The notes under the pieces are model-generated. The model was given only the letters and a program-made list of their open reading frames with translations. It was not told the origin of the DNA and made no database searches. Below, in pieces: positions 217-50,660 of a stretch of DNA of 64,000 bases. A program made the translations under genes and the position numbers. Source of the DNA: Pontibacter sp. G13 (lineage in GTDB: Bacteria; Bacteroidota; Bacteroidia; J057); contig NZ_CP134696.1 of the NCBI RefSeq assembly GCF_031851795.1, positions 2,465,001-2,529,000 on the forward strand, read 5' to 3'. Each line of letters opens with the position of its first letter. The stretch's first letter is position 1.

Positions 217-232
217 ATGAATCAGCATACAC

Positions 233-26495: not shown

Positions 26496-26568
26496 TCCCC
26501 CTGACGGGGCCCACTCCAGGCACTTCACGCCGCACAAGCCAGCCGCACTTTTCATCCATGCATGCTGG

Positions 26569-29011: not shown

Positions 29012-29168
29012 GTGCGGATGGCCTGCGGCGGCGATAGGGATAGGAGGGGCGAGCGCCAGCGAGGTCCGGAGCCTTCAGCGGAGGACGGTAGCCCCCGCAT
29101 AGCCCGGCTCTGGCGGCTCATGATGCCAAGCGGAACTCCCCGAGCTAGACCGCCAGAGATCGCCCAAA
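29012..29168. repeat. Copy 2 of the three-copy structured repeat element
   Basis: Nearly identical to copy 1 over its first 90 bases. Contains a perfect nine-pair stem, CTCTGGCGG (29108-29116) with CCGCCAGAG (29150-29158). It sits directly beyond the terminator of the sensor-regulator gene. Confidence 0.85.
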
Positions 29169-29177
29169 TGATCCAGC

Positions 29178-29210
29178 AAAAAAGCGAATCCCAAACACTT
29201 GGAATCCGCT
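29178..29210 (-). terminator. Rho-independent terminator of the hybrid two-component regulator gene
   Basis: On the minus strand GCGGATTCCAA pairs with TTGGGATTCGC (two G-T wobbles) around a four-base loop, followed by six T. A near-identical stem terminates nrdA at 50661. Confidence 0.8.
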
Positions 29211-29237
29211 TTGGCGCATGTATGTATCATCCCTCCA

Positions 29238-32200
29238 TCAGCTCGGGACCTCATCGACCGGCTCGCCTTCCTTGAGCTGCTTGAGATAGGCCGATGGCGA
29301 AAGCCCAAATTCCTTCTGGAAACATTTGCTGAAGTATCTCGGACTTTTGAAACCCGTGCGATAGGCCACTTCGGAAATGTTGAGGGATTGTTGCTTGAGG
29401 AGCTGGAGGGCGCGTTTGAGTCGGAATTGCTTGATGAAATTGGACGGTGAATCCTGCATGATTTCCTCCATCCGACGATAGAAGGTCGCGCGGCTCATGC
29501 TCATCTCGGAAGCGAGAAATTCCACACTGAGCCATGAGGCATCGATATGCGCCTCCAACAAATCCACCACTTGCTGGATAAATTGGTCCTCGGGGGATTG
29601 CACTTCCACCACTTTGGGCTCGACCGTGATGACCTTGCCGTATTTCTCCTTGAGCAGCATCCGATTGGACAGGAGATTTCGGATCCGCCAGCGCAGGAAT
29701 TCCATGCGAAAAGGCTTTTCGAGGAAATCATCGGCATCATGCTGGATGCACGCCAATCTTTGCTCCTCCGAATACCTGGCTGTCAACACCACAAATGGTA
29801 CATCATTGAGGGACTTGTTGCCACGCACCTGCTTGAGGAACGCCAATCCGTCCGTGCCCGGCATGATCATATCGCTCAGGATCAAATCCGGTGATTCACG
29901 CTTGGCCAATTCATACCCTTCCGCGCCATCTGCCGCAGTGATAATCCGGAACTCGGCCCCCAATGATTCCGCCAGCATGTGACGCAGCTCGGGATCATCT
30001 TCGGCAATCAACACCAAAGGTGCTTCGGCCAGATTGGCTTGTTCTTCAGGTATATCACCACTGGCATGGTCCACCTGAGGTCCATCCATTTCCGCGGCGG
30101 ATCGGTGCAATTCTTGAGGATCGTACAATTCCATCGCTGCTGGAATCCAGACCGTAATCCGTGTCTCTCCGGGCTTGCTCTCAGCAGCAATCTCCCCGTG
30201 ATGCAATCGGACCAGTCTCACCACCAGATCCAACCCCAATCCTGTCCCGCCCAGCAGTTGCTCCTTGGATACCTCAGCTTGGGTGTATGGCTCGAAAATT
30301 CGCTCCAGATCGGAAGGCGAGATTCCATTGCCATTGTCGATCACCTCAAGTCGAGTATAGGCACCTGCGGACATATTGGCGTTGGGTAGCGCATCTCCAG
30401 CGAGGAGTTCTGAGGCCACGCGGACCCGGATGGTTCCATGCTCCCCGGAGTATTTGAAGGCATTGGAGAGCAGGTTGAGGGTGATGATTTCCACCAACTG
30501 CTGATCAAACCAAGCGAGAATTTCGGTTTCGCGGGATTCGAAGTGGTAATGGATCTGCTTGACCGTGGCGACATCGTCCATATCGGTTTTGATGCGCTTG
30601 AGGAATTGGAGGATGTCTCCCCTACCCGCTCGCAATCTGAACGCCCCCATATCGCTTTTGCGGAGATTCATGATCTCATCGGTGAGGCGTTTGAGGCGCA
30701 GGGCATTTTGGTAGATTTTTTGGACTGTCTCCATCTGAACCTTATCGGGGTTTTCCGCCAGCACTTTTTCCAGCGGTCCCATGATGAGGGTCAATCGGTT
30801 GCGAATTTCGTGGGAAAGGTCGGAGAAATAATGAATGTTGGAGTCTTGCCGTGCGCGCTCCAAGGCAGCCTTCCGAAGCCGACGTTGGAGCCCTTCCCAT
30901 TTCCAAACAAGCAGTACCACACCGATCAACACCAAGCCGATGATCAGGCCATACATGACAAAAGCGGTCTTGGTCATCCAAAAGGCTGGCTTTATCTCGA
31001 TCGGTAGCGAGATAGATTGGCGAGTCCAGTACCCTTTGCTGTCAGAGCACATCACCTCGAATCGGTAGTTTCCCGCAGGCACCTGCACGTATTTGGCCAC
31101 CCGATCATCTGCACGGGTAAAGTGCCATGCTTCTTCCAGTCCCACGAGTCGATAGGCGTATTTGATCTTTTCGGGGGCAGCAAAATCTAGCGCCGAGAGG
31201 TGAATCTCAAACGAATTTCGATCGTGTTCCAGCGCGACATTTCCTGATTTGAGCTGGGCATCGATATCGGCATCAGGCTGGATCAAATCGGGCTGATCCT
31301 GATTGGGGTTGAACACCTGAAAATGACTGATCACCAAATTGGGATTGCCCGGTGCATAAGGCAGGGACTTGGGCATCAAATGGTAGATCCCATTGTTGCA
31401 CCCAAAGAAAATCCCGTCATGCGTGCGAGCGAGACTGTTGTAATTGAAGTGCGTATTGAGCATCCCATCGGTCACTCCGTAGTCGATGAAAGGCATCGGT
31501 TCTTCCGGGAGATACAAGGCCAGTCCTTGTTCGGTACCTACCCATACCCGGCCAAATTGATCCTCGGTAATGCCTGTAACCGTCATGGAAGGGAGTCCAT
31601 CTTCTACCGTGAAGTGCTCAAACCCAGATCTATCCGGAGCATATCGAAACAGCCCCCCACCTCTTGTTCCAATCCATACACGCCCGCGGGCATCTTCAAA
31701 CATCCCGAGTACGCCATAGCTGAGGTCTCCATCATCTGCGCCAAAATTGTAATAGCGGACCTGCCGCCCATCTGGATGCAATTGATATACCCCATAGCCT
31801 CGGGTACCTACCCAAATTGTCCCTTGGCGATCCTTGGTCATGGCCCCGATATGGAGACTCGTTCCATAGAGTTCGTTTTCCGCAAGCGGGCCTTCGGATT
31901 CCTCCAGCGTTTTGAGATTGAGCACACTGACCCCAACCTTCCATTGGCCGACCCAGATGAGATTGGGAGAGACTTCGAGCAGATCTATGACAGTATTTTC
32001 GAAGGTCTTGATCAGTTCCCAGTCACGGGCTTGTATATCGGTGCGTGTGGGGTTTTTGAGTCTAAAAATGCGTTCATGGGAAGCGATGAGCAAATCTCCT
32101 GATTGAGTCTGAACGATTTCCCGGACCCCTCCTTTGGGCATGGCGATATGCTCGAATTGCCGCTCATTGACCTTTTTCCGAAAAATTCCATCGTTGGGCG

Positions 32201-33335
32201 TTCCTACCCAGAGGCTTCCTTCCGAGTCTACACATGCAGAATGGATGATTTGATTGAGCGGGACATAATTGTCGGGATTGAGCTTGAGGAGATTCCATTC
32301 GAAGGGTTGCTGCTTGTACTGACGAATGCCCTGCAACGTCCCGATCCACAGCGAGTGGCTGGCATCCTTGAGCAAGCACGAAACGTGATCGCTCGGCAAT
32401 CCGCCAATGCGAGACTCGTCGGCTTGCATGTGCAGCACCTCGGCAGTCTCAAGGCTTTCAGACGCTTCCAGCAGGCAAATTCCCCGAGAAGTCGCCACCC
32501 AAAGCCTACCGGAAGATTCGATAGAAAGATCGCGGACTTCAATTCGATTGTCCTCCAGTAAGTCCTTTTCACCCAACCGAGTTGGTTGATCTTGGCGATT
32601 GGTCGGAAGCGCACATTTGATGAGTCTGGGTCCTCTGGTACCCATCCATAAGTACCGCTGCGAAGGATCGATCCGCATGGTGGAAATCGGTTGGCGAATC
32701 GAGGTTCGCTTTGGCTGCTCATCCGTGTTCCAAGACCAGAGTCCCCGATTGGTTCCGATCCACCATCTACCGAGCGGGTCTTGCTCGACTTGTTCGATCC
32801 ACAATCTTTTGGCATTTCGCTGGAACTGAGATTCACTCAGCCATACCTCGCGTTTCAGCGCTTCTCCCTGTTGAGATTCTGGGGTAATCCGGATCACCTG
32901 TTGCCCATCTCGCTGGACCATGAGGACATGACCTTGTTCATCGAGGATGAGTTGTTTGCCCACCAACCCCAACCAAGACTGGAATTTGCGGGTCTGGGGA
33001 TTAAAACAACTAAGGCCCGACTCGGAAGTGATCCAAATCTGGCCATGTCTATCCTCTAGGAGGTTGGTGACATTGTTGTTGAGCAAGGAATGGGAGTCCT
33101 GTGCATCGTGTGTGTACTGGATCACCGAGGCCCCATCATATCGATAAAGTCCTGAAAACGATCCAATCCACAAATACCCAGATCGATCGATCAGCATGGA
33201 ATTCACCGGTTGATTGAGGATTTTCCCATCCGGTGCGAATTCATGGAGGAATGGAAGTGTGGGAGTTGCTTGGGCTGGAATGAGTAATAACCACCCGAGG
33301 ATTCCCCACAAGCAAAGTATCAACAATCGACTCAT
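29238..33335 (-). CDS. Hybrid two-component system regulator (HTCS) of PUL 2
   Basis: A 1365-residue single-chain sensor-regulator. The ATG at 33335 begins a signal peptide (MSRLLILCLWGILGWLLLIP). In order: about fourteen Reg_prop beta-propeller repeats in the periplasm (DRSGYLWIGSFSGLYRYDG is the first), a Y_Y_Y domain near 700-780 (YAYRLVGLEEAWHF), a membrane helix near 790-815, HisKA with H842 (FSDLSHEIRNRL), HATPase (NLLSNAFKYSG, GTGLGLDLV), a receiver with D1155 (LILSDMIMPG), and a C-terminal AraC-type HTH (about 1265-1365). Such proteins bind an oligosaccharide released from the target glycan and activate their PUL. It follows the sulfatase at 33478 by 143 bp and a terminator. Confidence 0.95.
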   Translation of the reverse strand: MSRLLILCLWGILGWLLLIPAQATPTLPFLHEFAPDGKILNQPVNSMLIDRSGYLWIGSFSGLYRYDGASVIQYTHDAQDSHSLLNNNVTNLLEDRHGQIWITSESGLSCFNPQTRKFQSWLGLVGKQLILDEQGHVLMVQRDGQQVIRITPESQQGEALKREVWLSESQFQRNAKRLWIEQVEQDPLGRWWIGTNRGLWSWNTDEQPKRTSIRQPISTMRIDPSQRYLWMGTRGPRLIKCALPTNRQDQPTRLGEKDLLEDNRIEVRDLSIESSGRLWVATSRGICLLEASESLETAEVLHMQADESRIGGLPSDHVSCLLKDASHSLWIGTLQGIRQYKQQPFEWNLLKLNPDNYVPLNQIIHSACVDSEGSLWVGTPNDGIFRKKVNERQFEHIAMPKGGVREIVQTQSGDLLIASHERIFRLKNPTRTDIQARDWELIKTFENTVIDLLEVSPNLIWVGQWKVGVSVLNLKTLEESEGPLAENELYGTSLHIGAMTKDRQGTIWVGTRGYGVYQLHPDGRQVRYYNFGADDGDLSYGVLGMFEDARGRVWIGTRGGGLFRYAPDRSGFEHFTVEDGLPSMTVTGITEDQFGRVWVGTEQGLALYLPEEPMPFIDYGVTDGMLNTHFNYNSLARTHDGIFFGCNNGIYHLMPKSLPYAPGNPNLVISHFQVFNPNQDQPDLIQPDADIDAQLKSGNVALEHDRNSFEIHLSALDFAAPEKIKYAYRLVGLEEAWHFTRADDRVAKYVQVPAGNYRFEVMCSDSKGYWTRQSISLPIEIKPAFWMTKTAFVMYGLIIGLVLIGVVLLVWKWEGLQRRLRKAALERARQDSNIHYFSDLSHEIRNRLTLIMGPLEKVLAENPDKVQMETVQKIYQNALRLKRLTDEIMNLRKSDMGAFRLRAGRGDILQFLKRIKTDMDDVATVKQIHYHFESRETEILAWFDQQLVEIITLNLLSNAFKYSGEHGTIRVRVASELLAGDALPNANMSAGAYTRLEVIDNGNGISPSDLERIFEPYTQAEVSKEQLLGGTGLGLDLVVRLVRLHHGEIAAESKPGETRITVWIPAAMELYDPQELHRSAAEMDGPQVDHASGDIPEEQANLAEAPLVLIAEDDPELRHMLAESLGAEFRIITAADGAEGYELAKRESPDLILSDMIMPGTDGLAFLKQVRGNKSLNDVPFVVLTARYSEEQRLACIQHDADDFLEKPFRMEFLRWRIRNLLSNRMLLKEKYGKVITVEPKVVEVQSPEDQFIQQVVDLLEAHIDASWLSVEFLASEMSMSRATFYRRMEEIMQDSPSNFIKQFRLKRALQLLKQQSLNISEVAYRTGFKSPRYFSKCFQKEFGLSPSAYLKQLKEGEPVDEVPS

Positions 33336-33383
33336 AGAAGCGTAGCAGTAGCGAAGTTCAGGGGTGTCCAGCCCCATTGGCAC

Positions 33384-33415
33384 AAAAAGGAAAGCCAAGA
33401 ATTCCTCGGCTTTCC
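33384..33415 (-). terminator. Rho-independent terminator of the sulfatase gene
   Basis: On the minus strand GGAAAGCC pairs with GGCTTTCC around an 11-base loop, followed by TTTTTG. It separates the sulfatase unit from the regulator gene. Confidence 0.8.
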
Positions 33416-33477
33416 CAGTCAATTTATCATTTCACCGCAAGGCGAAAGCGTCAGTTCGGCCAATGGCCGCGGTTCAC

Positions 33478-34962
33478 TCAATCGGCTTGGGCAGCAGAAA
33501 TCTGAGGTTGCTTGACCTTCCAGATTTCATGCGGTGTGCGAGATTGATCCATCAGGATAGCCAGCTCCGCCGCGAGATCTGGATATTGATCAGCGACGTT
33601 TCGAGATTCGGACAGATCCGTGGAGAGGTTGTACAATTCCACAGGTTTGGAGGGATTGAGCCGGACTGCTTTCCAATCACCCCGACGAATGGCTTGATGC
33701 GTATATTTCGCCTCATGGAATTCCCAATAAAGATAATCATGTTTCTCTTGTAGATCACCTTTTCCCAGCATTTCCGGTGCAAAAGAAATCCCATCGATCT
33801 CCAAATTACTAATATCCACATGGGCCAATTCAGCCACTGTCGGCAGCACATCCCAAAATGCGGAAATATGATCGGAGGATTGGCCAGCCGGAATGTGTCC
33901 GGGCCAACGTGCAATAAACGGAATCCGGATTCCTCCTTCGTAGAGATCTCGCTTCATTCCTCTCAAAGGACCATTGGAATCAAATTGGTCAGGATGTGCC
34001 CCCCCTTCACGATGGGGTCCATTGTCGCTGGAGAACATCACGATGGTCTGTTCATCCAAGCCCAATTCCTGCAAGTGATCCAAAATTCGCTGCACATCGA
34101 GGTCGATGCGATGCACCATCGTGGCATAAGCGGCTTTGGGATTGGGTTGAGACTGGTAGCGTCCGAATCCTTTTTTGTTTCCTCCTTGGGTATTTTCCAC
34201 GAAAGGCGTTTCCTCAAACTGCCCCTTGTACTGTTCGAAAATGCTGTCCTCTGGAACAATCATCTCAGCATGCGGGGTGGTATATGCGAGGTAAAGGAAA
34301 AAGGGATTTTCCTGATGCTCAGAAATGAAATCTATCGCTCCATCAGTGAACAGATCATTGCTGTATGCTCCTCGTTGCCCGTTTTGATTTTCGGCGATTT
34401 CCACAGTGTCCCCATCTCTGAATAAGTATTCAGGAAACTGCCAATGCGCATGAGCTTGGTTGAGAAATCCGAAGTAGGAATCAAATCCCTTGGAAGTAGG
34501 CTCGCCGGTAGTTCCATGCATCCCCAATCCCCATTTTCCAATCAATCCCGTAGAATATCCGCCACGGCTCAACACCTCTGCGACTGTCACATCCTGAGGC
34601 TGTAGGTGCAATCCCCCTCCAAATCCATGACTTCCCCGCTCGTAATTTCCTCTCACTCTTCCATGCCCACTATGTCTTCCCGTCATCAGCGCGCCCCGGG
34701 AAGGAGCACATACCGTACTGCCGGCATAGTGCTGCATGAAGCGAATACCTTCGCCTGCCATGCGATCCAAATTGGGGGTGGGGATGGTTTCCTGTCCATA
34801 CACCCCCAAGTCGGCATAGCCCATATCATCTACCAAAATATAGACAATGTTGGGGCCCGAAGGCGAGTCCTGTAAGTCGACGCTGCTGCTGGCATTGGTC
34901 TGGCAGCCCGCCCAGACGGCACAAAGGCCGATCATGATCCAGTATAGTTGGTGCTTGCGCAT
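33478..34962 (-). CDS. S1-family sulfatase, lipoprotein (S1_16-like)
   Basis: A 494-residue formylglycine sulfatase. The ATG at 34962 starts a lipoprotein signal ending VWAGC (Cys20). The metal-site segment YILVDDMGYADLGVYG is followed by C85-A-P-S-R. The TGRHSGHGRVRGN stretch after the active site resembles the S1_16 group of Bacteroidota, which includes galactose/N-acetylgalactosamine 4-sulfatases; this is a pattern judgement. It is the last gene of the SusC-SusD-PKD series of PUL 2, 217 bp after the PKD lipoprotein. It would desulfate the glycan at the surface or in the periplasm. Confidence 0.9.
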   Translation of the reverse strand: MRKHQLYWIMIGLCAVWAGCQTNASSSVDLQDSPSGPNIVYILVDDMGYADLGVYGQETIPTPNLDRMAGEGIRFMQHYAGSTVCAPSRGALMTGRHSGHGRVRGNYERGSHGFGGGLHLQPQDVTVAEVLSRGGYSTGLIGKWGLGMHGTTGEPTSKGFDSYFGFLNQAHAHWQFPEYLFRDGDTVEIAENQNGQRGAYSNDLFTDGAIDFISEHQENPFFLYLAYTTPHAEMIVPEDSIFEQYKGQFEETPFVENTQGGNKKGFGRYQSQPNPKAAYATMVHRIDLDVQRILDHLQELGLDEQTIVMFSSDNGPHREGGAHPDQFDSNGPLRGMKRDLYEGGIRIPFIARWPGHIPAGQSSDHISAFWDVLPTVAELAHVDISNLEIDGISFAPEMLGKGDLQEKHDYLYWEFHEAKYTHQAIRRGDWKAVRLNPSKPVELYNLSTDLSESRNVADQYPDLAAELAILMDQSRTPHEIWKVKQPQISAAQAD

Positions 34963-35179
34963 ATCTGCGATTCTTGTTGATAAAGCGTTTTCAGGTACAG
35001 CAGGACAGAAGGTCCCCCAACGAGGCACCCAGTCCCCGACCCGCCTCCAGCATGCAGATTGCGGGTCGGTACTGTCTGATGAATTAGCGTGTATTGATGG
35101 GCATTATCATCTCAATTGGGGCTCAAAAGATCTCAATCCCAGAATTCCCGCATTCAAGATATTTTTCAACCCAATTGTG

Positions 35180-36292
35180 CTATTCGACATGAACAACTAC
35201 TTGGGACTTCACAGAGAAGATTCCCGAGTAAGGAGCATTGGCAGTTTTGGGTTGTGTGTAGGTCAATTCAAAAATGAGCGGCTCTGTGAAATCCAGGGCG
35301 GATATTCCCGATTCCACGAGATTTCCGTTGACGCGGACTTCGGTATGCTCGGCATCGTACAAGTCCCATTCTGGAATGAGTTGGGTCAAATCTGTCCCAT
35401 CCGGCAAGTCCATGAACACGTCGAATTGGTTGTAATCCCCCGCGTACAACTCGAGGGTTCCCGCTTGGCCACCGATCGTCAATTGCGTAAACTCGGGGAT
35501 GATCATCGGACATACCCAGTAGGTGCTGGTCTGATTCTCCGAATTGGTCAAGACGAATGCCTTTTCCTGAAATCTCAGATCATCTTCCGTATCGAATATG
35601 ATCCGGGTCTGGCCATTGACGAAGGACTCTGTTCCCGCTGGCAAAACCTCCACGGTCTCTGAATTGGTATTCAGCTCGATGGTCGGAATGACATTGATGT
35701 CCGCCACAGTGGAGAATGGGATGAATCGGCCTACTGCAATCTCCCCAAGTCTTGTTGGGCGATAATAACTCACCCCAATCATCCGGTTTTCATTGTCGAT
35801 AATGTCCGCTGTATTGCGAAAATCCTTGAACAAGAATGTGATGGGATCGAGGAATCGGTTATTCGCAGTGGCGCTATTGCCTACCTCAAACTGCGTGAAA
35901 TTGACAGCGTCGATATTTGGATCGGTGATCGTGATCTCTTTTTGAGCGATCGCCTCTACCCGTTCTTCCGAATCCAAAGCGTATCCACTTGCCACCATCG
36001 TAATGGTATAGGTTCCGGCACGGCTATAGGAATAGCTGAAATTGCCATTCACATCAGTTTTGAACCCCGTATCTCCGGATTCTCGCTGATCGTAATCATG
36101 GCCGGGATCTCCGGTAAACACCGCATAGAATTGGCCTTCGCCTTGATTGGTAAGGGCTAGCGTTTCAAACACTTGGTATTGCTCCTTGTCAAGGGAGAAT
36201 GCCGCCTCCGGATCGATAAAGGCAGGGTCTTCATTGGCGCACCCCCAGAGCATCAAGCCCAGCATGGTGCAGTATATAATCTGTCGAAACAT
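35180..36292 (-). CDS. PKD-domain surface lipoprotein of PUL 2 (SusE/F position)
   Basis: A 370-residue lipoprotein; the ATG at 36292 starts MFRQIIYCTMLGLMLWGC with lipidated Cys18. Residues about 25-130 form a PKD-like domain (FSLDKEQYQVFETLALTNQG; GNFSYSYSRAGTYTITMVASG). The remaining 240 residues are beta-rich without a family I recognise. Its place directly after susD (36 bp) is that of SusE/SusF surface glycan-binding proteins, so a binding role is likely by position; no catalytic motif is visible. Confidence 0.8.
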   Translation of the reverse strand: MFRQIIYCTMLGLMLWGCANEDPAFIDPEAAFSLDKEQYQVFETLALTNQGEGQFYAVFTGDPGHDYDQRESGDTGFKTDVNGNFSYSYSRAGTYTITMVASGYALDSEERVEAIAQKEITITDPNIDAVNFTQFEVGNSATANNRFLDPITFLFKDFRNTADIIDNENRMIGVSYYRPTRLGEIAVGRFIPFSTVADINVIPTIELNTNSETVEVLPAGTESFVNGQTRIIFDTEDDLRFQEKAFVLTNSENQTSTYWVCPMIIPEFTQLTIGGQAGTLELYAGDYNQFDVFMDLPDGTDLTQLIPEWDLYDAEHTEVRVNGNLVESGISALDFTEPLIFELTYTQPKTANAPYSGIFSVKSQVVVHVE

Positions 36293-36327
36293 GTGATTGG
36301 TCGTTAGATGAAATATCTGCAAGGGGT

Positions 36328-38085: not shown

Positions 38086-38090
38086 GATGA

Positions 38091-41267: not shown

Positions 41268-41363
41268 GATGGTAGGATTAAAAAATTCCTGAGAGAAGCA
41301 AAATCCGGGGCGGAGACAGGTCAATGAATGGCATGGCCCCGGGAGTTGGATGAGGATGGATAA

Positions 41364-41401
41364 GCGAATGGATGGCCGCACACGCGTTACCATCCATTCG
41401 C
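41364..41401. repeat. Perfect 12-bp inverted repeat between the ELWxxDGT gene and susC
   Basis: GCGAATGGATGG and CCATCCATTCGC enclose a 14-base loop; a shorter stem (GAACCGA/TCGGTTC) lies at 41409-41429. There is no T run. It could be an attenuator or 3'-end stabiliser between the two genes. Confidence 0.55.
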
Positions 41402-41438
41402 AGTGAGAGAACCGAAATTGCCTCGGTTCCCGGTATCA

Positions 41439-43370
41439 TTAGCGGGTAATCATGACCTTGGATGGGAGCATGTACCCTTCGATTTGGGTGAAGAGTGCAT
41501 ACACACCTACAGGCAAGTGGCCAACCTGAATCTGGTTGGAACCTTGACGCAATTCGCCTTTCCAAACCAAACGTCCAGCTGGGCTATAAAGCATCGCCAA
41601 TGAAGTAGCTTGACGGTCCAGCGTTACATTCAATACCTGAGTGGCAGGGTTTGGATAGACATTCAAGTAGTCATCCAATCGCAAGTTCACGGAAAGGGTG
41701 GTAGTGTCTTCCTGTGGCTTTTCAATGCGAGGATTCTCCAGATCAGTCACAGCTGGGCCCATCGCGTAGCTTCCGGGATCATAGACATTCAGCGCTTGAT
41801 CATCAGAGTAGATGTAGAGCTTTTGCTGATTTCTGGAAACGAACACGAGGTCCTCGTTGAAATTGGTGAGAGAGCCCGGGAAGGTATTCTCTGGCAACTC
41901 TGCCACTTTGAATGCGGTACGGGAAGAATCCTCAGCCAAAGATTGGAGGCACCACAGCTCGTAATTGGACTGGTTGTTGGCGTCATTGGCACGGAAGTAC
42001 ATGCGGTTGTTCGCAACAGTCATCTCCCGAGGGAAGGAGCTGGTCGTAGCACCGGGGAAGATATCGGTGACCAAGTAGACTTTGTCCTCCATTGGATTGT
42101 AGCGGAACAATTCCTGCCCGACACGCTCAAGACCCGTAACGGCCGAATCGACGCTGTTTACGAATGCCTTGAAGTACAATTCGTCATTGAAGATGCAAAA
42201 GTACTCGATCCAGTTAGGACCATCTGTTCCGTTATTCAACTGGCTGTTCATGTTCCACAACAAGGGGAAGTCGCCAAAAGTCAGGTCTGTGGAGTGAATC
42301 TCCGTGTTGGTGATCCCGTCATTGGCACGGAAGTACGTACGGCCATTGAAGTTGAATGGGAATGCAGCACCTGTGTTGCCGGAAATCGTCGGATCATTGG
42401 CATCGGGTACGGAGTTCAAATCACCGATTGGGTAGGTTCCCCATGGTTCACCATTTGTTACCCAGATCTCATTGTCAAGGTATTCGAATTGATCCATGAT
42501 GGTGGAATCATTCGTCCAGTAGGAAGGCGTAAATACCCGGAACCATACCTGCTCGTCATTCACGGCAAACAACCAGCGGATGTCGGAATCCACGGTCGCC
42601 TCTGGTACCACGCTGGAGGTATCGTTGTCAAATCCAATGTCGAGTACCAATTTGGTCGTATCTCCGGTGGTCACCCACAGCTCTTGACCAGTAGTGTCAT
42701 CCAGACCTACGAAAAATGCTTTTTCGCCATTTCCAGTCACTTGGATTTGCGTCAAGGTCTGGCCATCTGGAACCATGACAGGTTGGATTGGATGGAGCAT
42801 TTGGGTTCCCAAATTGGTGCCATCTGTCCACCACAGGTAGCTCTTGTCATTGTCTGCGGCAGAAATATTGTCCTTGGCACGGAACAACAACCCTCCCTTG
42901 AAAGGCTTGAGCATATCAGGAGCTGATCCATTTCCCGCTCCCAAAAAGATGTCGGCAACCATTTTGGTGCCATTCGCAGTTCCGTCGGTCATCCACAATT
43001 CTGCGCCATCTGTACCATTGTCAGCGGAGAAGTAAACGGTATCCCCGATTGCCACCAAGTGCTTGGGATCAGAACCCGGTTCTCCGGGGTTGATGTCGAG
43101 GACCATTTCAGTACCCGCCAAGGTTCCATCTGTTTTCCAGAGCTCCTCCCCGTAGTTCACAGTATCGGAAGCAATAAAGAATACATATTGGCTGGTCGTG
43201 ACCATGTTCTTGCCTTGCAGGCCAGGCTTCTGTTCTTCGGTCGTGATGAGTGTGTTGGCGGGAGTCAATTCTGTCATCGTGCCCTGCACGCCCGGCTCAA
43301 GAGCAATCTGAGCTTGTGCAGTCACACCACAGAACAGTGCGCCCAGTAGTAGGGTAGTCGTCTTCTTCAT
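41439..43370 (-). CDS. ELWxxDGT-repeat protein with T9SS sorting domain
   Basis: A 643-residue secreted protein. The ATG at 43370 begins MKKTTTLLLGALFCGVTAQAQ. Five or more degenerate repeats of the ELWxxDGT type are visible (ELWKTDGTLAGTEMVLDI, ELWMTDGTANGTKMVADI, YLWWTDGTNLGTQM, ELWVTTGDTTKLVLDI, EIWVTNGEPWGTYPIG), with alternating YFRANDG-like strands, suggesting a beta-propeller. The last 80 residues are a T9SS type-A tail (LNVYPNPATQVLNVTL; GVYALFTQIEGYMLPSKVMIT). No catalytic site is apparent. It lies 172 bp before susC on the same strand. Function unknown; surface glycan binding is a guess from context. Confidence 0.82.
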   Translation of the reverse strand: MKKTTTLLLGALFCGVTAQAQIALEPGVQGTMTELTPANTLITTEEQKPGLQGKNMVTTSQYVFFIASDTVNYGEELWKTDGTLAGTEMVLDINPGEPGSDPKHLVAIGDTVYFSADNGTDGAELWMTDGTANGTKMVADIFLGAGNGSAPDMLKPFKGGLLFRAKDNISAADNDKSYLWWTDGTNLGTQMLHPIQPVMVPDGQTLTQIQVTGNGEKAFFVGLDDTTGQELWVTTGDTTKLVLDIGFDNDTSSVVPEATVDSDIRWLFAVNDEQVWFRVFTPSYWTNDSTIMDQFEYLDNEIWVTNGEPWGTYPIGDLNSVPDANDPTISGNTGAAFPFNFNGRTYFRANDGITNTEIHSTDLTFGDFPLLWNMNSQLNNGTDGPNWIEYFCIFNDELYFKAFVNSVDSAVTGLERVGQELFRYNPMEDKVYLVTDIFPGATTSSFPREMTVANNRMYFRANDANNQSNYELWCLQSLAEDSSRTAFKVAELPENTFPGSLTNFNEDLVFVSRNQQKLYIYSDDQALNVYDPGSYAMGPAVTDLENPRIEKPQEDTTTLSVNLRLDDYLNVYPNPATQVLNVTLDRQATSLAMLYSPAGRLVWKGELRQGSNQIQVGHLPVGVYALFTQIEGYMLPSKVMITR

Positions 43371-43547
43371 AGTGTATTGAGATTGTAGGTAGGAGCTCAC
43401 CAGCTGTATAGTGCCAATGCGTTCCATGACATGAAAGTACCGCCCCAAAATGGCCACCACAACCTCCTGAACGTATTTGACACCTTGTTGAGACAGACTG
43501 TGCGCATAACCCTAACGGCATTCCACTTCATGCTAATTCCCATTCGC

Positions 43548-43555
43548 TAAGTTTG
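43548..43555 (+). promoter_or_regulatory. Possible -7 promoter element of the plus-strand sulfatase
   Basis: TAAGTTTG fits the Bacteroidota -7 consensus TAnnTTTG, 69 bp before the sulfatase start codon. A convincing -33 element is not seen. Confidence 0.4.
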
Positions 43556-43623
43556 ATAATCAGTTGGATGATCCGGAATTTAGCGGACTTCCCAACCCCT
43601 ACATTATCATAAAATTACGAATA

Positions 43624-45048
43624 ATGGATATAAAATCCTGCTTGCATACCCTCCTCTTGTTGGGGCTGTCTGCCTTCATGGGATGGGCCCAAGATACCAG
43701 ACCCAATGTCATCCTACTGGTAGCCGATGACTTGGGCTGGCGAGATGTCGGATTCATGGGAAGCCCTTATTACCAAACGCCCAACCTGGATCTACTGGCC
43801 AGTGAATCATTAGTCATCCAGCAAGGATATGCCGGTGCCGCCAACTGTGCCCCAAGCCGGGCAGTATTGCTCTCCGGACAGGTCACCCCCCGACATGGGA
43901 TTTACACCGTCGGCAATTCCGATCGAGGAAAGGCTCACACCCGCAAATTGATTCCTACCGAGAACACCGTCCACTTTGCCGATAGCATGGTCACGCTCGC
44001 ACATGCATTTCAACAGGCGGGATATGTAACTGCCAACATCGGCAAATGGCATGTCAGCGATGATCCCACCGAATTTGGGATCGACTACAACCGGGGCGGA
44101 AGTCATCGTGGTGGTCCCGGCAAGGATGGGTACTTTTCCCCCTACAACCTCGACCATCTGGAGGATGGACCAGCAGGCGAATACTTGACCGATCGGCTCA
44201 TGCAGGAGGCCATCCAATTTCTGGAAACCTACCAAGACTCGGCCTTTTTCCTGTACATGCCCTTTTATGGGGTGCATACGCCGCTGATCGGCAAGCCTGA
44301 ATTGGTAGACAAATACTCGGGCATTTCTCCGGTGAATGGCCAAGGCCACAAGCCTCACTATTCCGCCATGATCGAAACACTGGACCAAAATGTAGGCCGA
44401 CTGCTAGCTGCCTTGAAGCGACTGGATCTGGACAATACCATCATCATTTTCACTTCCGACAACGGCGGCATTGCCAATATTTCCAGACAGTGGCCCTATC
44501 GCGCGGGCAAAGGGTCCTACTACGAAGGCGGGCTTCGCGTCCCCTTGATGTTTCACTGGTCTGGACACATTCCCTCAGGAAGAAATGAACAGCTTCCGAT
44601 GACCTTTTTGGACCTCTACCCTACCCTTTTGGGACTATCCGACATGGAAGCACCAGCGGGAAAAACATTGGACGGAAACGACCTCTCTCCATTTTTGCTG
44701 GGCCAAGCGGTCCCTGAAATCATCCAAAATAGACCGCTGATTTGGCATTTTCCGATTTACCTGCAAGCGTATTCCCAAGGAGCTGACGATAGCCGTGATC
44801 CGCTCTTCAGGACTCGACCCGGCCGGGTGATTCGACAGGGCAATTGGAAGCTCCACCACTATTTTGAGGACGACGAATGGGAACTCTTCGACCTGAGCCA
44901 AGACCCCGGAGAGCGCATCAATCTCGCGTCCCGTCATCCCGAGAAGCTGAATGCACTCAAACTACAATTGGAAACTTGGCGAGAGAAGTATCAAGCGCCG
45001 ATCCCTACAGCTCCCAATCCCCGCTTCCAATCCGATCACCAACGATAA
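43624..45048 (+). CDS. S1-family sulfatase (subfamily not assigned)
   Basis: A 474-residue formylglycine sulfatase, the only plus-strand gene of the PUL region. The ATG at 43624 is chosen because it begins a signal peptide (MDIKSCLHTLLLLGLSAFMGWAQ). Metal-site segment LLVADDLGWRDVGFMG, then C75-A-P-S-R in the maturation motif, TANIGKWHVSD with the conserved Lys, and FTSDNGG near residue 280. It has no lipobox, so it is probably periplasmic. It is divergent from the ELWxxDGT gene and convergent with the large GH-A-like gene; its own terminator follows. Confidence 0.9.
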   Translation: MDIKSCLHTLLLLGLSAFMGWAQDTRPNVILLVADDLGWRDVGFMGSPYYQTPNLDLLASESLVIQQGYAGAANCAPSRAVLLSGQVTPRHGIYTVGNSDRGKAHTRKLIPTENTVHFADSMVTLAHAFQQAGYVTANIGKWHVSDDPTEFGIDYNRGGSHRGGPGKDGYFSPYNLDHLEDGPAGEYLTDRLMQEAIQFLETYQDSAFFLYMPFYGVHTPLIGKPELVDKYSGISPVNGQGHKPHYSAMIETLDQNVGRLLAALKRLDLDNTIIIFTSDNGGIANISRQWPYRAGKGSYYEGGLRVPLMFHWSGHIPSGRNEQLPMTFLDLYPTLLGLSDMEAPAGKTLDGNDLSPFLLGQAVPEIIQNRPLIWHFPIYLQAYSQGADDSRDPLFRTRPGRVIRQGNWKLHHYFEDDEWELFDLSQDPGERINLASRHPEKLNALKLQLETWREKYQAPIPTAPNPRFQSDHQR

Positions 45049-45068
45049 TTCTATTCCTAATTGAAGGT

Positions 45069-45101
45069 AAGGCCCGTTCAGGTTACTGGATGGGCCTTTT
45101 T
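45069..45101 (+). terminator. Rho-independent terminator of the plus-strand sulfatase
   Basis: AAGGCCC pairs with GGGCCTT around a 16-base loop and runs into TTTTT, 20 bp past the stop codon. Confidence 0.75.
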
Positions 45102-45149
45102 CGATGGGCGATTTGGGCGTATCTCGGCGCGCGGAGAATCTGTTCCTTC

Positions 45150-45325
45150 CGGAGATGAAAGGCGCCGAGCCAGTCCCTTCCGGTCTCCGCTGGCGCTCCG
45201 GTCGGTGGGCGACTTGTTCCTGCTCGATCATGTTGGCCAATTTCTCATGGGATCTTTTGCAAATGAAGATTGGAAGATGCCACCGACTACACCTTCAGGC
45301 ACTTTACGCCACGCACCACAGCCGC
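45150..45325. repeat. Gene-free segment related to the 26.4-kb repeat tract
   Basis: Holds CCAGTCCCTTCCGG and CAGGCACTTTACGCC, which match the sequence flanking the 17-bp inverted repeat at 26451, in the same order. No gene is supported between 45049 and 45425. Confidence 0.5.
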
Positions 45326-45345
45326 ACACTACATCAGCGTACCTA

Positions 45346-45374
45346 CAAAAACAGCCACTCATCTGAGTGGCTGT
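45346..45374 (-). terminator. Rho-independent terminator of the GH-A-like gene
   Basis: On the minus strand ACAGCCACTC pairs perfectly with GAGTGGCTGT around a four-base loop, followed by TTTTT; 50 bp past the stop at 45425. Confidence 0.85.
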
Positions 45375-45424
45375 CTGCATAAGGGTCCTGCATAGACCTC
45401 GAAAAACCAAATATTCGTTCCGAA

Positions 45425-48400
45425 CTAGCTGCGGATCTTTCCGGCCAGTTGGACAGGCGTTCCATCCAAAGTTTCACCCGAGATTCGCCAGACATACAAG
45501 CCAACGGACTGTGCATCCAGCCACGCTTTGAATTGATCTTGATTGGCGCTTTTCAACAGGGTTCTACCTGCCAAATCCAGTAGTTCGATCTCGTATCGGA
45601 TGAATTTTCCTTCCAAATCTGGGTCCAACGGATGCGCGCCAAATCCCTGCTCGGTCAGGTATTCTTCGATGTCCGTGGTGAAGTTCTTGTTCACCATCGC
45701 CGCTTGAGAGAAATAGTAGCTTTCCCCGCTTGCGTTGACGGTCTTCAGCGCAAAATAATGACGCCCTGTCCCCATTTGACCATTGTCTTGATAGCTGGTC
45801 CCCGTGATTCCGGAGGCCACTTCCTCCCAAGGGCCATAGGGCTGGGTAGATCGGTAGAGCGTGTGCGTACCGCCATAAGCGGAGTCAGATTCGGTCCAGT
45901 TCACCACTACGGTACCCGTAACCGCCTGCTCGCTGGCATTCACCAATACAGGGGAGTATGGCAGATCCCGGTGGTAGGTCACGGCCATTTCTTCGGAGGG
46001 CGCACTTTCGCCCAAGCCGTTGGAGGCTGTCACCACGCAGTAGTAGGTTTGGCCGTCAACCAATCCCTTGAATCGAGCGCCCGTGATATTTCCCGCGTCC
46101 AACGAGTTGGGATAGGTTCCGGCAGCCGTCCCCCACTTGAGGGTGTAATTCTGCGCACCGGGAACACTCCACCATTCGGCTGACAACCGATCGTTGCGTG
46201 GATGCAGATGCGCCAAAACAGGAGCGTCCGGAACACTCATGGTTAGGGAAATCGTATTGGAACGAGCGGAAATTCCCTCAGTGTTGAAGGCTTCTACCTC
46301 GATGAAATAGGTCTGACCGGGTACCATACTCGTCAAGAGATGGGTCGTATTGTCTGCGCCCAACACCTCCTCAAAGGAATCCAAAGTGCCGCTGGAGGCT
46401 CCATAGTGAATCCGATAGCCATCTGCATTGGCGCGCTTCCACCAGCTCAACTCCACCCCATTGGCCGCAATTTCGGCTTTGTACACACGAGGGGCCTGTG
46501 GTGCTTGCTGAGGCTTTTTGCGAGATACTTTTAGCACAGCGTAAGGCGGTACGGACAGCGTGCCGGAAGTCTCTACGAAACGGATGACTTGAACCAGAGA
46601 TTCAGACTCGATCCCAGCCTCTGGGACGACCATTTCTACCCACAGCGTATCGAGCAAGGGAACGCCATTCACTTGCAGGGAAATCTCATGGGGTTTGTCG
46701 GAAGCATTGGCCATGAGGGCATAGTCATATCCGTAGTTGCCCTTGAGCGCCTGTGCATAGAAGGCCTCCACTTCAGTTGCGCTGGTATTCTGATTGTTGG
46801 CATCCAGCATCCACTGCGTCCCGGAGATTGTACTTCCATACGTCCAAGTGGATCGATTGATCGCTTGGTAGAACATCTTCATGACGGGCATCTTGGCGGA
46901 CCATTTGATGCCATTTTGGATGGTGTCCACATTCATCGGGGTTCCAGCTAGGTAGGCATTATTCATCCAGCCTGTGCGATTGGTTTGGGGACTGCCCACC
47001 GAGTTGAGGTGGTGGTGTCCGAGGAATTTCACATCGGGATGGTCCATCATGCGCATGAGGTAATTGGCGGCATACACTCCGGAGAAGTAGGTCTTGGAAA
47101 CCGTGGGATTGAACATCCCCCATTCGGTGAGATTCACGGGCATGGGCGAGTTCCAGCCGGCGCTTTGCTGGTCGTTGATGACATTGCTCGACAGATATGC
47201 CATCGCACCATAAGTCCGTGTCATCGCTCTGGGGAAGTCATCATTCTGGCCATACACTGCGTAGGAGTGCTTTCCGAAAATACCCCAATAAGGATTGGCA
47301 AATGCGCTGATGCCACTACTTCCTCCTGCAAAGCTTCCCATAGCGTCCCAGCTGTAGTTCATCGAAATCGGCGCATTGGGGTAATGGGCACGAATGCTAT
47401 CGACCATCACTTCCATGCGGGTCGCATAGTCCAACCCATTTTGGAAGAAATAATGACCACGTCCCGGGTGGAAAAAATAAGGCTCATTGCACATCTGGAA
47501 GTCTTCCACGATGATATGGTTGTCGTAGCAGAATTTCGCCAAGGCCGCCGCGCCTTCTGGCGTATCGTTGAATGCGTTGAAGGTAATGATCAGCTTGGCT
47601 TGATTCTCTCCGAGCAGCTGGTATAGATCTGACAAGCGGTAGGCTCCCTTCACATCTGAATAGCGGTACTGCTTGAAGAATCCTGACTCTGGGTTGTTGG
47701 GCTCTCCCTCCTTCATCATCTGGTCTGCCCACTCGATCTCATTGTATCCAGTCCGCGCATTGTAGATGTCCCCCGTCGTTCCGCTAAAATATCTCAGCCA
47801 GCCAATCTCCAACGAATCTGCGATCGCACGGAAATCTGGGTGGGTGTAGGTGTAGTTGTTGTCGATGATCCGCAGATTGTAGCCTGCTACTCCCTCTACC
47901 AATTCATGGCCTGAGGTGGTGTCGATATTGAAGGTCAAGGACACCTGGATCTGGCTCGCCAAAAAGTCATCTATCGCGCCTTGGAGAAATAGCACTGCCT
48001 GATCGATCGCAGCCTGATCAGATGTGGGATCATTCAAAACTCCTTGTGCGGCAATCACAGAATCTGCCAAATCATCGTACGCCTGCTGAGGTACATTGCC
48101 CGGATCAGTACCGACGCTAGCATCGCCGAGTAGATCTTGGGCCTCCATGATCAGGTCGTTCAAATCGGAACGGTCGATATCACTCAACACAAAATCGTCC
48201 ACATAGAAATTCTGGAGGGTAGTGTCGCCGTTGGCATTGTACATGTATTCCAGATAGAACTGGATTTCAGAAATCTCCGTCGTGGTGTTCAGGAACGGTA
48301 CCTGAGCAGCTGCGGGAAGCTGGTTTCCGTCAATGGCCAAACTCCAAACCTGCTGGGCAACGTCAAGCTCAATATCGAGCAGATAATCTTGGTTTTTGAC

Positions 48401-48799
48401 AAAACCGGTATTGGCAGGGATCAATGTCTGCGTCGCCATATCGTCCACCATGAGGAAGGCATTGCCATTGCCATTGTCGACGATGATCTGGGCGATGGTG
48501 TCTTGCTGGGCATTGCGGAAGGTCACATAGGCCGTGCACCAGTTACGCTCCGCATTGACGGTAAAACTCACAAATGCATGGGAGGAAATGCCGGGGAATG
48601 TCCGCTGGACCGCTGGATCTGAAAGCGGTTCATTGTAGTCCAGGACCAATTTGCCTTGGTCGGTGTAGACTCGGCCGGAGGAGTTGTACTCCACCCAAGC
48701 TGGATCTAATGGGCCGGAGAAATCATCTTGGATCAATCCTACTTGCGCCCATAGTCCCAAGGGAGCAAGCAGTAGCCAAACGAGTATCGAATGTTTCAT
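45425..48799 (-). CDS. Multidomain T9SS protein with putative GH-A-clan glycosidase domain
   Basis: A 1124-residue secreted protein. After a signal peptide (MKHSILVWLLLAPLGLWAQ): a concanavalin-like beta-sandwich (about 22-205); a helical FIVAR-like linker (about 210-283); a TIM-barrel-like domain (about 290-660) with M-C-N438-E439-P440 and L-T558-E559-W560-G, placed 120 residues apart as expected for acid/base and nucleophile of clan GH-A; a beta domain to about 765; three fibronectin-III domains (about 770-1040); and a T9SS tail. The barrel recalls GH39/GH51/GH79 relatives, but I cannot assign a family. It is the only candidate glycosidase of PUL 2, so it may cut the glycan imported by that SusC/SusD. 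Catalysis is inferred, not shown. Confidence 0.75.
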   Translation of the reverse strand: MKHSILVWLLLAPLGLWAQVGLIQDDFSGPLDPAWVEYNSSGRVYTDQGKLVLDYNEPLSDPAVQRTFPGISSHAFVSFTVNAERNWCTAYVTFRNAQQDTIAQIIVDNGNGNAFLMVDDMATQTLIPANTGFVKNQDYLLDIELDVAQQVWSLAIDGNQLPAAAQVPFLNTTTEISEIQFYLEYMYNANGDTTLQNFYVDDFVLSDIDRSDLNDLIMEAQDLLGDASVGTDPGNVPQQAYDDLADSVIAAQGVLNDPTSDQAAIDQAVLFLQGAIDDFLASQIQVSLTFNIDTTSGHELVEGVAGYNLRIIDNNYTYTHPDFRAIADSLEIGWLRYFSGTTGDIYNARTGYNEIEWADQMMKEGEPNNPESGFFKQYRYSDVKGAYRLSDLYQLLGENQAKLIITFNAFNDTPEGAAALAKFCYDNHIIVEDFQMCNEPYFFHPGRGHYFFQNGLDYATRMEVMVDSIRAHYPNAPISMNYSWDAMGSFAGGSSGISAFANPYWGIFGKHSYAVYGQNDDFPRAMTRTYGAMAYLSSNVINDQQSAGWNSPMPVNLTEWGMFNPTVSKTYFSGVYAANYLMRMMDHPDVKFLGHHHLNSVGSPQTNRTGWMNNAYLAGTPMNVDTIQNGIKWSAKMPVMKMFYQAINRSTWTYGSTISGTQWMLDANNQNTSATEVEAFYAQALKGNYGYDYALMANASDKPHEISLQVNGVPLLDTLWVEMVVPEAGIESESLVQVIRFVETSGTLSVPPYAVLKVSRKKPQQAPQAPRVYKAEIAANGVELSWWKRANADGYRIHYGASSGTLDSFEEVLGADNTTHLLTSMVPGQTYFIEVEAFNTEGISARSNTISLTMSVPDAPVLAHLHPRNDRLSAEWWSVPGAQNYTLKWGTAAGTYPNSLDAGNITGARFKGLVDGQTYYCVVTASNGLGESAPSEEMAVTYHRDLPYSPVLVNASEQAVTGTVVVNWTESDSAYGGTHTLYRSTQPYGPWEEVASGITGTSYQDNGQMGTGRHYFALKTVNASGESYYFSQAAMVNKNFTTDIEEYLTEQGFGAHPLDPDLEGKFIRYEIELLDLAGRTLLKSANQDQFKAWLDAQSVGLYVWRISGETLDGTPVQLAGKIRS

Positions 48800-48904
48800 T
48801 TCGTAAGTGATGAGGTAGTCTCAGGATTGAGTAGCATTCAAAAAACTGTCTCTCAGGCGCGTAAACAAGCATTGACACGGAATGAGACATGGAATGAGAC
48901 AGGG

Positions 48905-50480
48905 CGATCCCTCAGAAGAACCTTGGAGAAATGAGCCATACGATTGGGCAAGTCAAGTCAAGGGTTAAAACCCTTGCTTGCGGGGTGTCGCGCCTACAGC
49001 GCTTGGATGGATGTTTGCCTTTCCTGAGCGCGGAGCAAACTGCCATGCGAAAAAACATTGCCTCATCCCGCAAAATTTCGACGCGGCGGCGCATGTGGGT
49101 GGGGAAATTTATGCGGGATCTCCCATGATGGGTCAAGGGTTAAAACCCTTGCCTGCGGGGTGCCGCGCCTACAGCGCTTGAATGGATATTTGCCTCTCCT
49201 GAGCGCGGAGCAAACTGCCACGCGAAAAAAACAATGCCTCATCCCGCAAAATTTCGACGCGGTGGCGCATGTGGGTGGGGAAATTTATGCGGGATCTCCC
49301 ATGATGGGTCAAGGGTTAAAACCCTTGCCTGTGGGGTGTCGCGCCTACAGCGCTTGGATGGATGTTTGCCTTTCCTGAGCGCGGAGCAAACTGCCATGCG
49401 AAAAAACATTGCCTCATCCCGCAAAATTTCGACGCGGTGGCGCATGTGGGTGGGGAAATTTATGCGGGATCTCACGCCTCGTGCATGCCGAGCCTTGTCA
49501 TTTGCCTAGGGAGGAACTGACGGCACACCCATTCCAAATGCATCACGTCATCCCCGACGGCAATGGCGTGGGCATGGATACCGCCCTGCGGGCGCTTTTT
49601 CTTCGGGGCAGGCACAAGACCATGCCCCTACGAAAAAGGTATTTGACTCAGGGGCGCATCCTGCCCTGCGGGCGGCCAACCCGCGACTCCCGGTGCAGGG
49701 ACGCGAGATCCCGGATAAATCCCGCCGCGTGCAATGGCCTTCGCAGGGATTTTCCGGGATGAGGCGTAGGGAAATTTGGTATTTGGGCCGCTTGCCATGC
49801 GAAAAAACATTGCCTCATCCCGCAAAATTTCGACGCGGTGGCGCATGTGGGTGGGGGAAATTTATGCGGGATCTCACGCCTCGTGCATGCCGGGCCTTGT
49901 CATTTGCCTAGGGAGGAATATCCATCCACGCCCCAAACCCGCATGTCATTCCCGACGGCAATGGCGTGGGAATGGATGCTGCCCTGCGGGCGCCCAACCA
50001 GCGACCCCCATTGCAGGGACGTGAGGTCCCGGATAAATCCCGCCACGCGCAATGGCCATCGCGGGGATTTTCCGGGATGAGGCGTAGGGAAATTTGGTAT
50101 TTGGGCCGCTTGTCACGCGAAAAAAACAATGCCTCATCCCGCAAAATTTCGACGCGGTGGCGCATGTGGGTGGAGAAATTTATGCGGGATCTCACGCCTC
50201 GTGCATGCCGGGCCTTGCCATTTGCCTAGGGAGGAATATCCATCCACGCCCCAAACCCGCATGTCATTCCCGACGGCAATGGCGTGGGAATGGATGCTGC
50301 CCTGCGGGCGCCCAACCAGCGACCCCCATTGCAGGGACGTGAGGTCCCGGATAAATCCCGCCACGCGCAATGGCCATCGCGGGGATTTTCCGGGATGAGG
50401 CTTCATGATTGTTGGGATGCAAGCGCTGTAGGCGCGTATTCGCCTAGCAAGGGGTGCCAACCCCTTCACCAGCCAGGATG
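48905..50480. repeat. Gene-free repeat tract after PUL 2, with a 318-bp tandem duplication
   Basis: Uses the same modules as 26.6-29.0 kb. Module A palindromes at 48959, 49134 and 49310; module B hairpins at 49065-49119, 49241-49295, 49416-49470, 49817-49872 and 50136-50190; module D (CCCGGATAAATCCCG with GGGGATTTTCCGGGAT) at about 49661-49764, 49978-50082 and 50296-50400. The block 49765-50082 is repeated almost exactly at 50083-50400. Earlier units recur with a period near 175 bp. Open frames here span repeats and show no protein features. Confidence 0.88.
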
Positions 50481-50485
50481 AAAAG

Positions 50486-50649
50486 TGCGGATGGCCTGCG
50501 GCGGCGATAGGGATAGGAGTGGCGAGCGCCAGCGAGGTCCGGAGCCTTCAGCGGAGGACGGGAGCGATAGCGGACCCACGGATAGCCCGGCCTCGGCGAC
50601 TGACCTTGCCAAGCGGAACATGTATGCCGAGCCGCCGAGGATCGCCCAT
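50486..50649. repeat. Copy 3 of the three-copy structured repeat element
   Basis: Same start and end as the copies at 29 and 29012. Its stem CCTCGGCG (50591-50598) with CGCCGAGG (50633-50640) is perfect but differs in sequence from copy 2 by three compensated pairs. Confidence 0.85.
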
Positions 50650-50660
50650 ATCATCCAAGC

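What the first reader, a model, noticed from the sequence alone, without database searches (positions are those of the whole stretch)
29012..50649. Three-copy element with compensatory base changes in one stem
Copies at 29-216, 29012-29168 and 50486-50649 share their ends. The stem is CTCTGGCG/CGCCAGAG in copy 2 and CCTCGGCG/CGCCGAGG in copy 3: three base pairs changed on both sides, pairing kept. Copy 1 has one mismatch in the same stem. Each copy lies next to a minus-strand gene terminator. Preserved pairing with changed sequence suggests selection on RNA or DNA structure, so this may be an undescribed structured RNA or a structure-dependent mobile repeat.
Basis: seen in the sequence. Interest (0 to 1): 0.7.

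Follow-up and report, generated by a model that had tools for sequence, protein, structure and literature searches.

The report
Folded DNA caps bracketing repeat arrays
The three look-alike sequences belong to a family of at least 191 copies in this genome whose base pairing is strictly kept while the letters change; they come as inward-facing pairs that bracket repeat arrays and move with them, and they are an undescribed larger relative of the unexplained 'Flavo-1 RNA' of Bacteroidota.

Summary
Pairing is kept by two-sided changes in 30 of 32 pairs: 613 double-changed cells against 128 in shuffles, 99% paired against about 40% when slid. The family occurs across Bacteroidota. Far relatives match Rfam Flavo-1 (RF01705), whose 76-nt model covers only the core; window copies do not match it.

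The copies are mobile caps. Of 56 neighbour pairs, 45 are head-to-head, many bracketing palindromic repeat arrays. Two such brackets are near-identical up to the cap ends and unrelated outside. They lie between genes, mostly just past a gene's 3' end. No transposase or target duplication was found; Y1 (RAYT) transposases are absent from several copy-rich genomes.

The sense strand folds (G·T 60 against A·C 7). G·U is only 0.7% of pairs and loops are GNYA/GNA rather than GNRA, favouring single-stranded DNA over RNA; this is inferred, and folding energies do not decide. In about 35 Chryseobacterium species one syntenic copy is under strong purifying selection. Best reading: a non-autonomous, single-strand-folding mobile repeat; enzyme unknown.

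The parts
28..218 (+). Copy 1 of the cap element; hairpin P6 carries an insert of about 26 nt; one mismatch in stem P7
   Evidence: R1 cmsearch 130.9 bits, E 4e-29, full length
29012..29169 (+). Copy 2 of the cap element; right-hand cap of the array 26549-29011
   Evidence: R1 135.8 bits, E 3e-30
50485..50651 (+). Copy 3 of the cap element; cap at the end of the array 48957-50463
   Evidence: R1 157.9 bits, E 2e-35
26362..26548 (-).
   Evidence: R1 54.3 bits, E 3e-11; R2 44.8 bits
45111..45327 (-).
   Evidence: R1 29.5 bits, E 1.6e-5; R2 49.8 bits, E 8e-10; gene call
26549..29011 (.). Non-coding array of several palindromic repeat families bracketed by copies 4 and 2
   Evidence: repeat families D1, D2, D15; tandem repeats; sequence; no called gene
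48957..50463 (.). Array of related palindromic repeats on the 5' side of copy 3; no left-hand cap detected here
   Evidence: families D6-D9; tandem repeats
29030..29035 (+). P1 5' strand GGCGAT of copy 2 (pairs with 29159-29164 ATCGCC)
   Evidence: inner P1 pairs occur as several Watson-Crick types in 149 copies
29159..29164 (+). P1 3' strand ATCGCC of copy 2, followed by the conserved 3' end CAAAT
29108..29116 (+).
   Evidence: P7: 7 of 7 pairs with two-sided changes
29150..29158 (+). P7 3' strand CCGCCAGAG of copy 2
50591..50598 (+). P7 5' strand CCTCGGCG of copy 3
50633..50640 (+). P7 3' strand CGCCGAGG of copy 3

Best explanation
The element is the end piece ('cap') of a non-autonomous mobile repeat of Bacteroidota that works as a folded single strand, most likely single-stranded DNA. 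Shown here: each cap has a closing stem P1 with nested stems P2/P3, three hairpins P4-P6 with G-A-rich GNA/GNA internal loops and GNYA/GNA apical loops, and a stem-loop P7, then ends in CGCCCAAAT. Two caps often lie head-to-head (3' ends outward) with a short spacer or an array of palindromic repeats between them, and such a bracket can be copied to a new intergenic site as one unit. Most caps point their 3' end at the 3' end of a gene. Flavo-1 'RNA' is the simpler branch of the same superfamily. Inferred: when the site is single-stranded (for example at the replication fork) the caps fold and are recognised by an enzyme supplied in trans, which cuts at the outer ends and inserts the bracket, often within about 10 kb. 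The enzyme is not identified, and a Y1/RAYT transposase is not obligatory. In Chryseobacterium one copy has become a fixed, selected feature of unknown role.
For: Covariation: own copies; relatives; mainly Chryseobacterium. Sense-strand folding: G-T 60 against A-C 7 over four alignments; conserved structure closer to the energy minimum on the sense than the antisense strand. DNA-like features: G-U 0.7% of pairs; own loops GNYA 181, GNA 41, GNRA 2; GNA loops are known as extraordinarily stable DNA mini-hairpins (Yoshizawa 1997, as cited in PMC6479982). Mobility: near-identical copies with unrelated 3' flanks; brackets L030 and L157 alike from ATTTGGGCG to CGCCCAAAT and unrelated outside, in opposite orientation about 11 kb apart; best-matching copy within 10 kb for 27 of 184 against 2.1 expected. 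Head-to-head pairs: 45 -+ against 5 +-, 3 ++, 3 --, and in G098 every gap under 450 bp is a -+ pair. Intergenic, 126 of 184 copies facing a gene 3' end. Flavo-1 link. Flavo-1 hits in F. psychrophilum lie sense or antisense and many are outside transcribed regions (PMC9723704).
Against: No enzyme, autonomous copy or target duplication was found. RNA against DNA is not settled by folding energy: conserved pairs are recovered better with DNA parameters, but the energy ratio is better with RNA parameters. A fixed copy under purifying selection in Chryseobacterium is not expected of a purely selfish repeat. Many copies have no partner detected. Array growth and local duplication could partly come from ordinary recombination or replication slippage.
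Confidence: 0.6

Rival explanations
1. A genuine structured non-coding RNA family (as Flavo-1 is filed), dispersed by transposition and acting as RNA, for example as a 3'-end, antisense or trans-acting RNA.
For: Strong covariation and tandem G-A modules are typical of RNA; the sense strand folds; Rfam lists Flavo-1 as sRNA; one copy under purifying selection in Chryseobacterium; energy ratio slightly favours RNA; some Flavo-1 hits coincide with 5' transcribed regions (PMC9723704).
Against: G-U is only about 0.7% of pairs; GNRA loops are almost absent, GNYA 181 against GNRA 2; Flavo-1 hits lie indifferently sense or antisense and many are outside transcribed regions (PMC9723704); most copies sit antisense at gene 3' ends; no conserved promoter was seen by eye upstream of the Chryseobacterium copy.
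Confidence: 0.25
2. REP/BIME-type repeats mobilised by a TnpAREP (RAYT, Y1) transposase, the 'atypical secondary structures' reported for RAYT subclass 2.6 of Bacteroidetes.
For: High copy, intergenic, inverted pairs; a RAYT with the subclass 2.6 motifs NHIH/WQ/YIHQNP is in the genome; subclass 2.6 has unusual structures (PMC6006769).
Against: That RAYT is flanked by another hairpin repeat, with no copy of the element within the 3.2-kb locus; copy-rich genomes G098, G059, G089 (element) and G029, G035 (Flavo-1) have no Y1_Tnp match; no GT[AG]G-tagged 20-40 nt hairpin.
Confidence: 0.1
3. Quasi-palindromes whose arms are kept complementary by mutation (template switching between arms), without selection on structure.
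For: Almost all changes are Watson-Crick to Watson-Crick with few intermediates.
Against: G-A/GNA internal loops and the short interrupted stems are conserved rather than corrected; G-T exceeds A-C 60 to 7, so one strand matters; the same fold with different sequence occurs in other families and genera.
Confidence: 0.05

Closest known systems
Flavo-1 RNA (Rfam RF01705; Weinberg 2010, PMC2864571)
   Same: Core AGGGATrG-AG-GG ... AGCCCGAC; full-length Flavo-1 copies also carry P1, P7 and the 3' end CGCCCAAAT; high copy, Bacteroidota; R1 and R2 match Flavo-1 copies end to end.
   Different: Window copies do not reach Flavo-1. They have three hairpins P4-P6 where Flavo-1 has one; the Rfam model lacks P1, P7 and the ends. 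Pairing into brackets is not part of the published description that I could read.
REP / BIME repeats with TnpAREP (RAYT) transposases
   Same: Intergenic, high copy, inverted pairs, structure-defined, probably ssDNA.
   Different: 157-250 nt multi-branched, no GT[AG]G tag, no cognate RAYT nearby, and present in genomes without any Y1 transposase match.
MITEs and other small non-autonomous mobile repeats
   Same: No ORF, inverted ends, mobile as a unit of 0.4-1.6 kb.
   Different: Ends are folded structures with covariation rather than fixed inverted repeats; no target duplication.
Integron attC sites
   Same: Recognised as folded single strands; stem sequence free, structure kept (general knowledge).
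   Different: Dispersed rather than in cassette arrays; different architecture. Core-site sequences were not searched for.

Membership tests
Flavo-1 RNA (RF01705) | Score at or above the gathering cut-off of 42 bits | tested here: not met
   No match of the window at gathering, of six copies at E<=5, or in the own genome
Flavo-1 RNA (RF01705) | Shared core and architecture (AGGGAT..., AGCCCG, P1, P7, CGCCCAAAT) | tested here: met
   L081 and L083 are found by R1 and by Flavo-1; L194 and L195 show all parts; R2 matches L081, L082, L083, L194, L195 end to end, E 1e-5 to 2e-4 (L194 was in the training set of R2)
REP/BIME with TnpAREP | Short (20-40 nt) hairpin with GT[AG]G tetranucleotide at its foot | tested here: not met
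   Element is 157-250 nt and multi-branched with no such foot
REP/BIME with TnpAREP | Copies flank the cognate Y1 transposase gene | tested here: not met
   No R1 match in L031 or L032, nor in 29 further Y1 loci L196-L224
REP/BIME with TnpAREP | Y1 transposase present in genomes rich in the repeat | tested here: not met
   G098, G059, G089, G029, G035: zero PF01797 matches
REP/BIME with TnpAREP | Frequent inverted pairs | tested here: met
   45 of 56 neighbour pairs within 4 kb are head-to-head
MITE | Short non-coding element with inverted ends that moves as a unit | tested here: met
   L030 against L157 brackets
MITE | Target-site duplication | tested here: not met
   No excess of direct repeats of 2-5 nt at outer ends of 42 brackets
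RNA guide of a transposon nuclease or recombinase | Variable loop or guide matching flanking DNA | tested here: not met
   P7 loop matches its own flanks no better than shuffled flanks; no Rfam match to any such RNA
Integron attC | Core sites recognised by IntI and cassette organisation | not tested
   Architecture differs; no dedicated search was run

The most novel reading that the evidence does not exclude
A phylum-wide superfamily of elements selected as folded single-stranded DNA, with Flavo-1 (now filed as an RNA) as one branch, forms the ends of composite mobile repeats that are moved by an unidentified enzyme other than a Y1 transposase; one copy has been recruited by Chryseobacterium for a cellular function.
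Probability: 0.4. Interest if true: 0.85.

Novelty: new variant of a known kind. Interest (0 to 1): 0.7.

Why it matters
Flavo-1 has been listed as a candidate RNA without known function since 2010. The full element, its use as paired mobile caps, the near absence of G-U pairs, the GNYA/GNA loops and the one-strand bias make a direct test possible: is a 'candidate RNA' of Bacteroidota in fact a DNA structure? If so, covariation does not always mean RNA, an enzyme that handles branched ssDNA in Bacteroidota remains to be found, and one copy under selection at a fixed locus calls for a cellular role.

Tried and rejected
Rfam at gathering and permissive thresholds: no family for the element itself. 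RAYT as partner: rejected as obligatory. Autonomous copy inside own brackets: only host genes, such as an antiporter-like, a ribD-like and a DNA polymerase IV-like gene (named by eye). Target duplication or palindromic target: none. Guide-like match of the variable P7 loop to flanks: none. Replication-strand bias: none seen. Empty site in a congener: the orthologous gene in G059 has no flanking copies, but intergenic synteny is too poor for a clean empty site. Folding energies to separate RNA from DNA: mixed result. tRNA control for G-U content: too few tRNAs in the fetched loci, abandoned. Exact own-type pattern in named genomes: none. (an E. coli record) was unnecessary.
Full report
Observation. 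A covariance model R1 (166 positions, 32 pairs) was built from 14 copies of the same genome. In the window it finds five full-length copies: 28-218 (+), 29012-29169 (+), 50485-50651 (+), 26362-26548 (-) and 45111-45309 (-). The last extends to 45327 with a second, broader model, at E 8e-10.

Copy number. In the whole genome R1 returned 150 matches, the number scored, nearly all full length, with E from 6e-42 to 2e-6. Reading the regions around them gave 191 distinct copies, a lower bound. Two of them lie on the small contigs C2 and C3.

Anatomy (sense strand). A longer subtype extends the P5 loop by about 60 nt.

Covariation. On 149 distinct own copies, 30 of 32 pairs have two-sided changes, with 613 double-changed cells against 128 +- 8 in shuffles. 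99.0% of cells pair, against 37-47% when partners are slid. In 52 copies from other genomes it is 26 of 32 pairs, 172 cells against 40. In 40 copies, mainly single-copy Chryseobacterium ones, it is 11 pairs, 40 cells against 10. These alignments are fitted to the model and the copies are related, so the numbers are not probabilities; the slid controls and the separate lineages make the conclusion safe.

RNA or DNA. G-U is 0.7% of pairs in own copies and in relatives, far below what I would expect of structured RNA (general knowledge; no control was completed). Where pairs depart from Watson-Crick, G-T outnumbers A-C 60 to 7, and the conserved fold is closer to the minimum on the sense than the antisense strand. 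So one strand folds, which argues against a double-strand cruciform or neutral arm correction. Apical loops in own copies are GNYA 181, GNA 41, GNRA 2; in the mainly Chryseobacterium set GNA 37 of 38 classified. Internal loops are GA/GA, GGA/GGA and other GNA/GNA. GNA loops form extraordinarily stable DNA mini-hairpins (Yoshizawa 1997, as cited in PMC6479982), whereas RNA favours GNRA (general knowledge). Folding energies give a mixed answer. I therefore favour ssDNA, as an inference.

Paired caps. Neighbouring copies within 4 kb are -+ 45 times, +- 5, ++ 3, -- 3: head-to-head, 3' ends outward. Spacers run from 6 bp to several kb; some long ones hold host genes. In the window, copies 4 and 2 bracket 2463 bp of palindromic repeats without a called gene. 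In genome G098, of another family, the same head-to-head pairs bracket about 80-320 bp of unrelated ~45-bp palindromes TTTAACCTTGT...ACAAGGTAAA. The architecture is conserved and the filler is not.

Mobility. Near-identical copies have 3' flanks no more alike than random ones; the exception among the 40 most similar pairs is L099/L175, where the 3' flank is shared too. 5' flanks are sometimes shared. Brackets L030 and L157, about 11 kb apart and in opposite orientation, align from the ATTTGGGCG end to the CGCCCAAAT end and not beyond, with repeats gained or lost inside. The best-matching copy lies within 10 kb for 27 of 184 copies, 2.1 expected. No transposase gene and no target duplication was seen. 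An orthologous gene flanked by caps in G098 has none in G059 of the same genus.

Context. 186 of 191 copies are intergenic by a home-made gene caller. Where a 3'-side gene was seen, 126 copies point their 3' end at a gene's 3' end (median 78 nt from the stop codon) and 58 at a gene start. The window's copies follow terminators of minus-strand genes.

Relatives and Flavo-1. R1 finds the family in 12 of 100 relatives, in many copies in G098, G089, G059 and G009. A model from diverse copies (R2) finds it in 22 of 198 genomes of the phylum, 12 of 103 genera, including one outside the class. Relatives L081 and L083 exceed the gathering score of Flavo-1. Flavo-1 occurs in 27 of the same 100 genomes, not in the own one. 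Full-length Flavo-1 copies show the same P1, core, P7 and CGCCCAAAT end, and R2 matches five of them end to end. Flavo-1 was listed in 2010 as a probable RNA, not cis-regulatory (PMC2864571). In F. psychrophilum its hits lie sense or antisense and many are outside transcribed regions (PMC9723704).

RAYT. The genome has a RAYT with the subclass 2.6 motifs (PMC6006769), but its flanks carry another hairpin repeat. G098, G059, G089, G029 and G035, rich in the element or in Flavo-1, have no Y1 transposase match. Y1 is thus not needed for the present copies; an extinct one cannot be excluded.

A fixed copy. A 20-nt core pattern hits 43 named stretches, mostly different Chryseobacterium species with one hit each. 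In these the copy sits between an aldehyde dehydrogenase gene and adhP (genes named by sequence resemblance, not searched). Outside the search anchor it is 92% identical on average, against 49% in the adjacent intergenic sequence and 58% at the fast-evolving codon position of the dehydrogenase gene, taken as the third. The search requires an exact core, which biases towards conserved copies, but the contrast is large. A cellular role there is likely and unknown.

Open oddity. Between recent duplicates the 34-nt P7 loop differs at 17.3% of sites and the rest at 2.6% (pairs not independent). It does not match the flanks.

Verdict. A real, strongly selected, mobile, single-strand-folding element; an unlisted branch of a superfamily that includes Flavo-1. 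Whether it acts as RNA or DNA, its enzyme and its cellular role are open.

Noticed in passing
window 27682-27727, 28054-28099, 28198-28243, 28570-28615: Repeats in the bracketed array score 34.6 bits against Rfam Acido-Lenti-1 (gathering 37, E 1e-4): this motif too may be a repetitive hairpin.
   Followed up: no
L032 1258-1803 (-) with hairpins at about 1135-1255 and 1855-2065: The only RAYT-like gene of the genome is flanked by five hairpin repeats of the type CGCGGACTTCCGGACCGTG...GCCTGCCGCG(C/T)AGTCCGCG, a candidate cognate repeat of subclass 2.6.
   Followed up: partly
P7 loop of all own copies: The about 34-nt loop is hypervariable even between recent duplicates, 17% against 2.6% in the rest.
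   Followed up: partly
L247 and about 35 Chryseobacterium loci (L235-L277): One syntenic copy next to an aldehyde dehydrogenase gene is as conserved as the slow codon positions of that gene.
   Followed up: partly
window 53922-53996 (-): AdoCbl-II (cobalamin) riboswitch upstream of the minus-strand gene at 52789-53763.
   Followed up: no
window 14788-15350: Four tandem copies of a 141-bp unit, 96% alike.
   Followed up: no
window 59048-59628: Tandem array of about 115-130-bp units rich in C and A, between genes.
   Followed up: no
G098 spacers, e.g. L183 970-1275: About five 45-bp palindromes TTTAACCTTGTAAGTACTTGATAATCAAT..ACAAGGTAAA between head-to-head caps; the total spacer is often 283-318 bp.
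   Followed up: no
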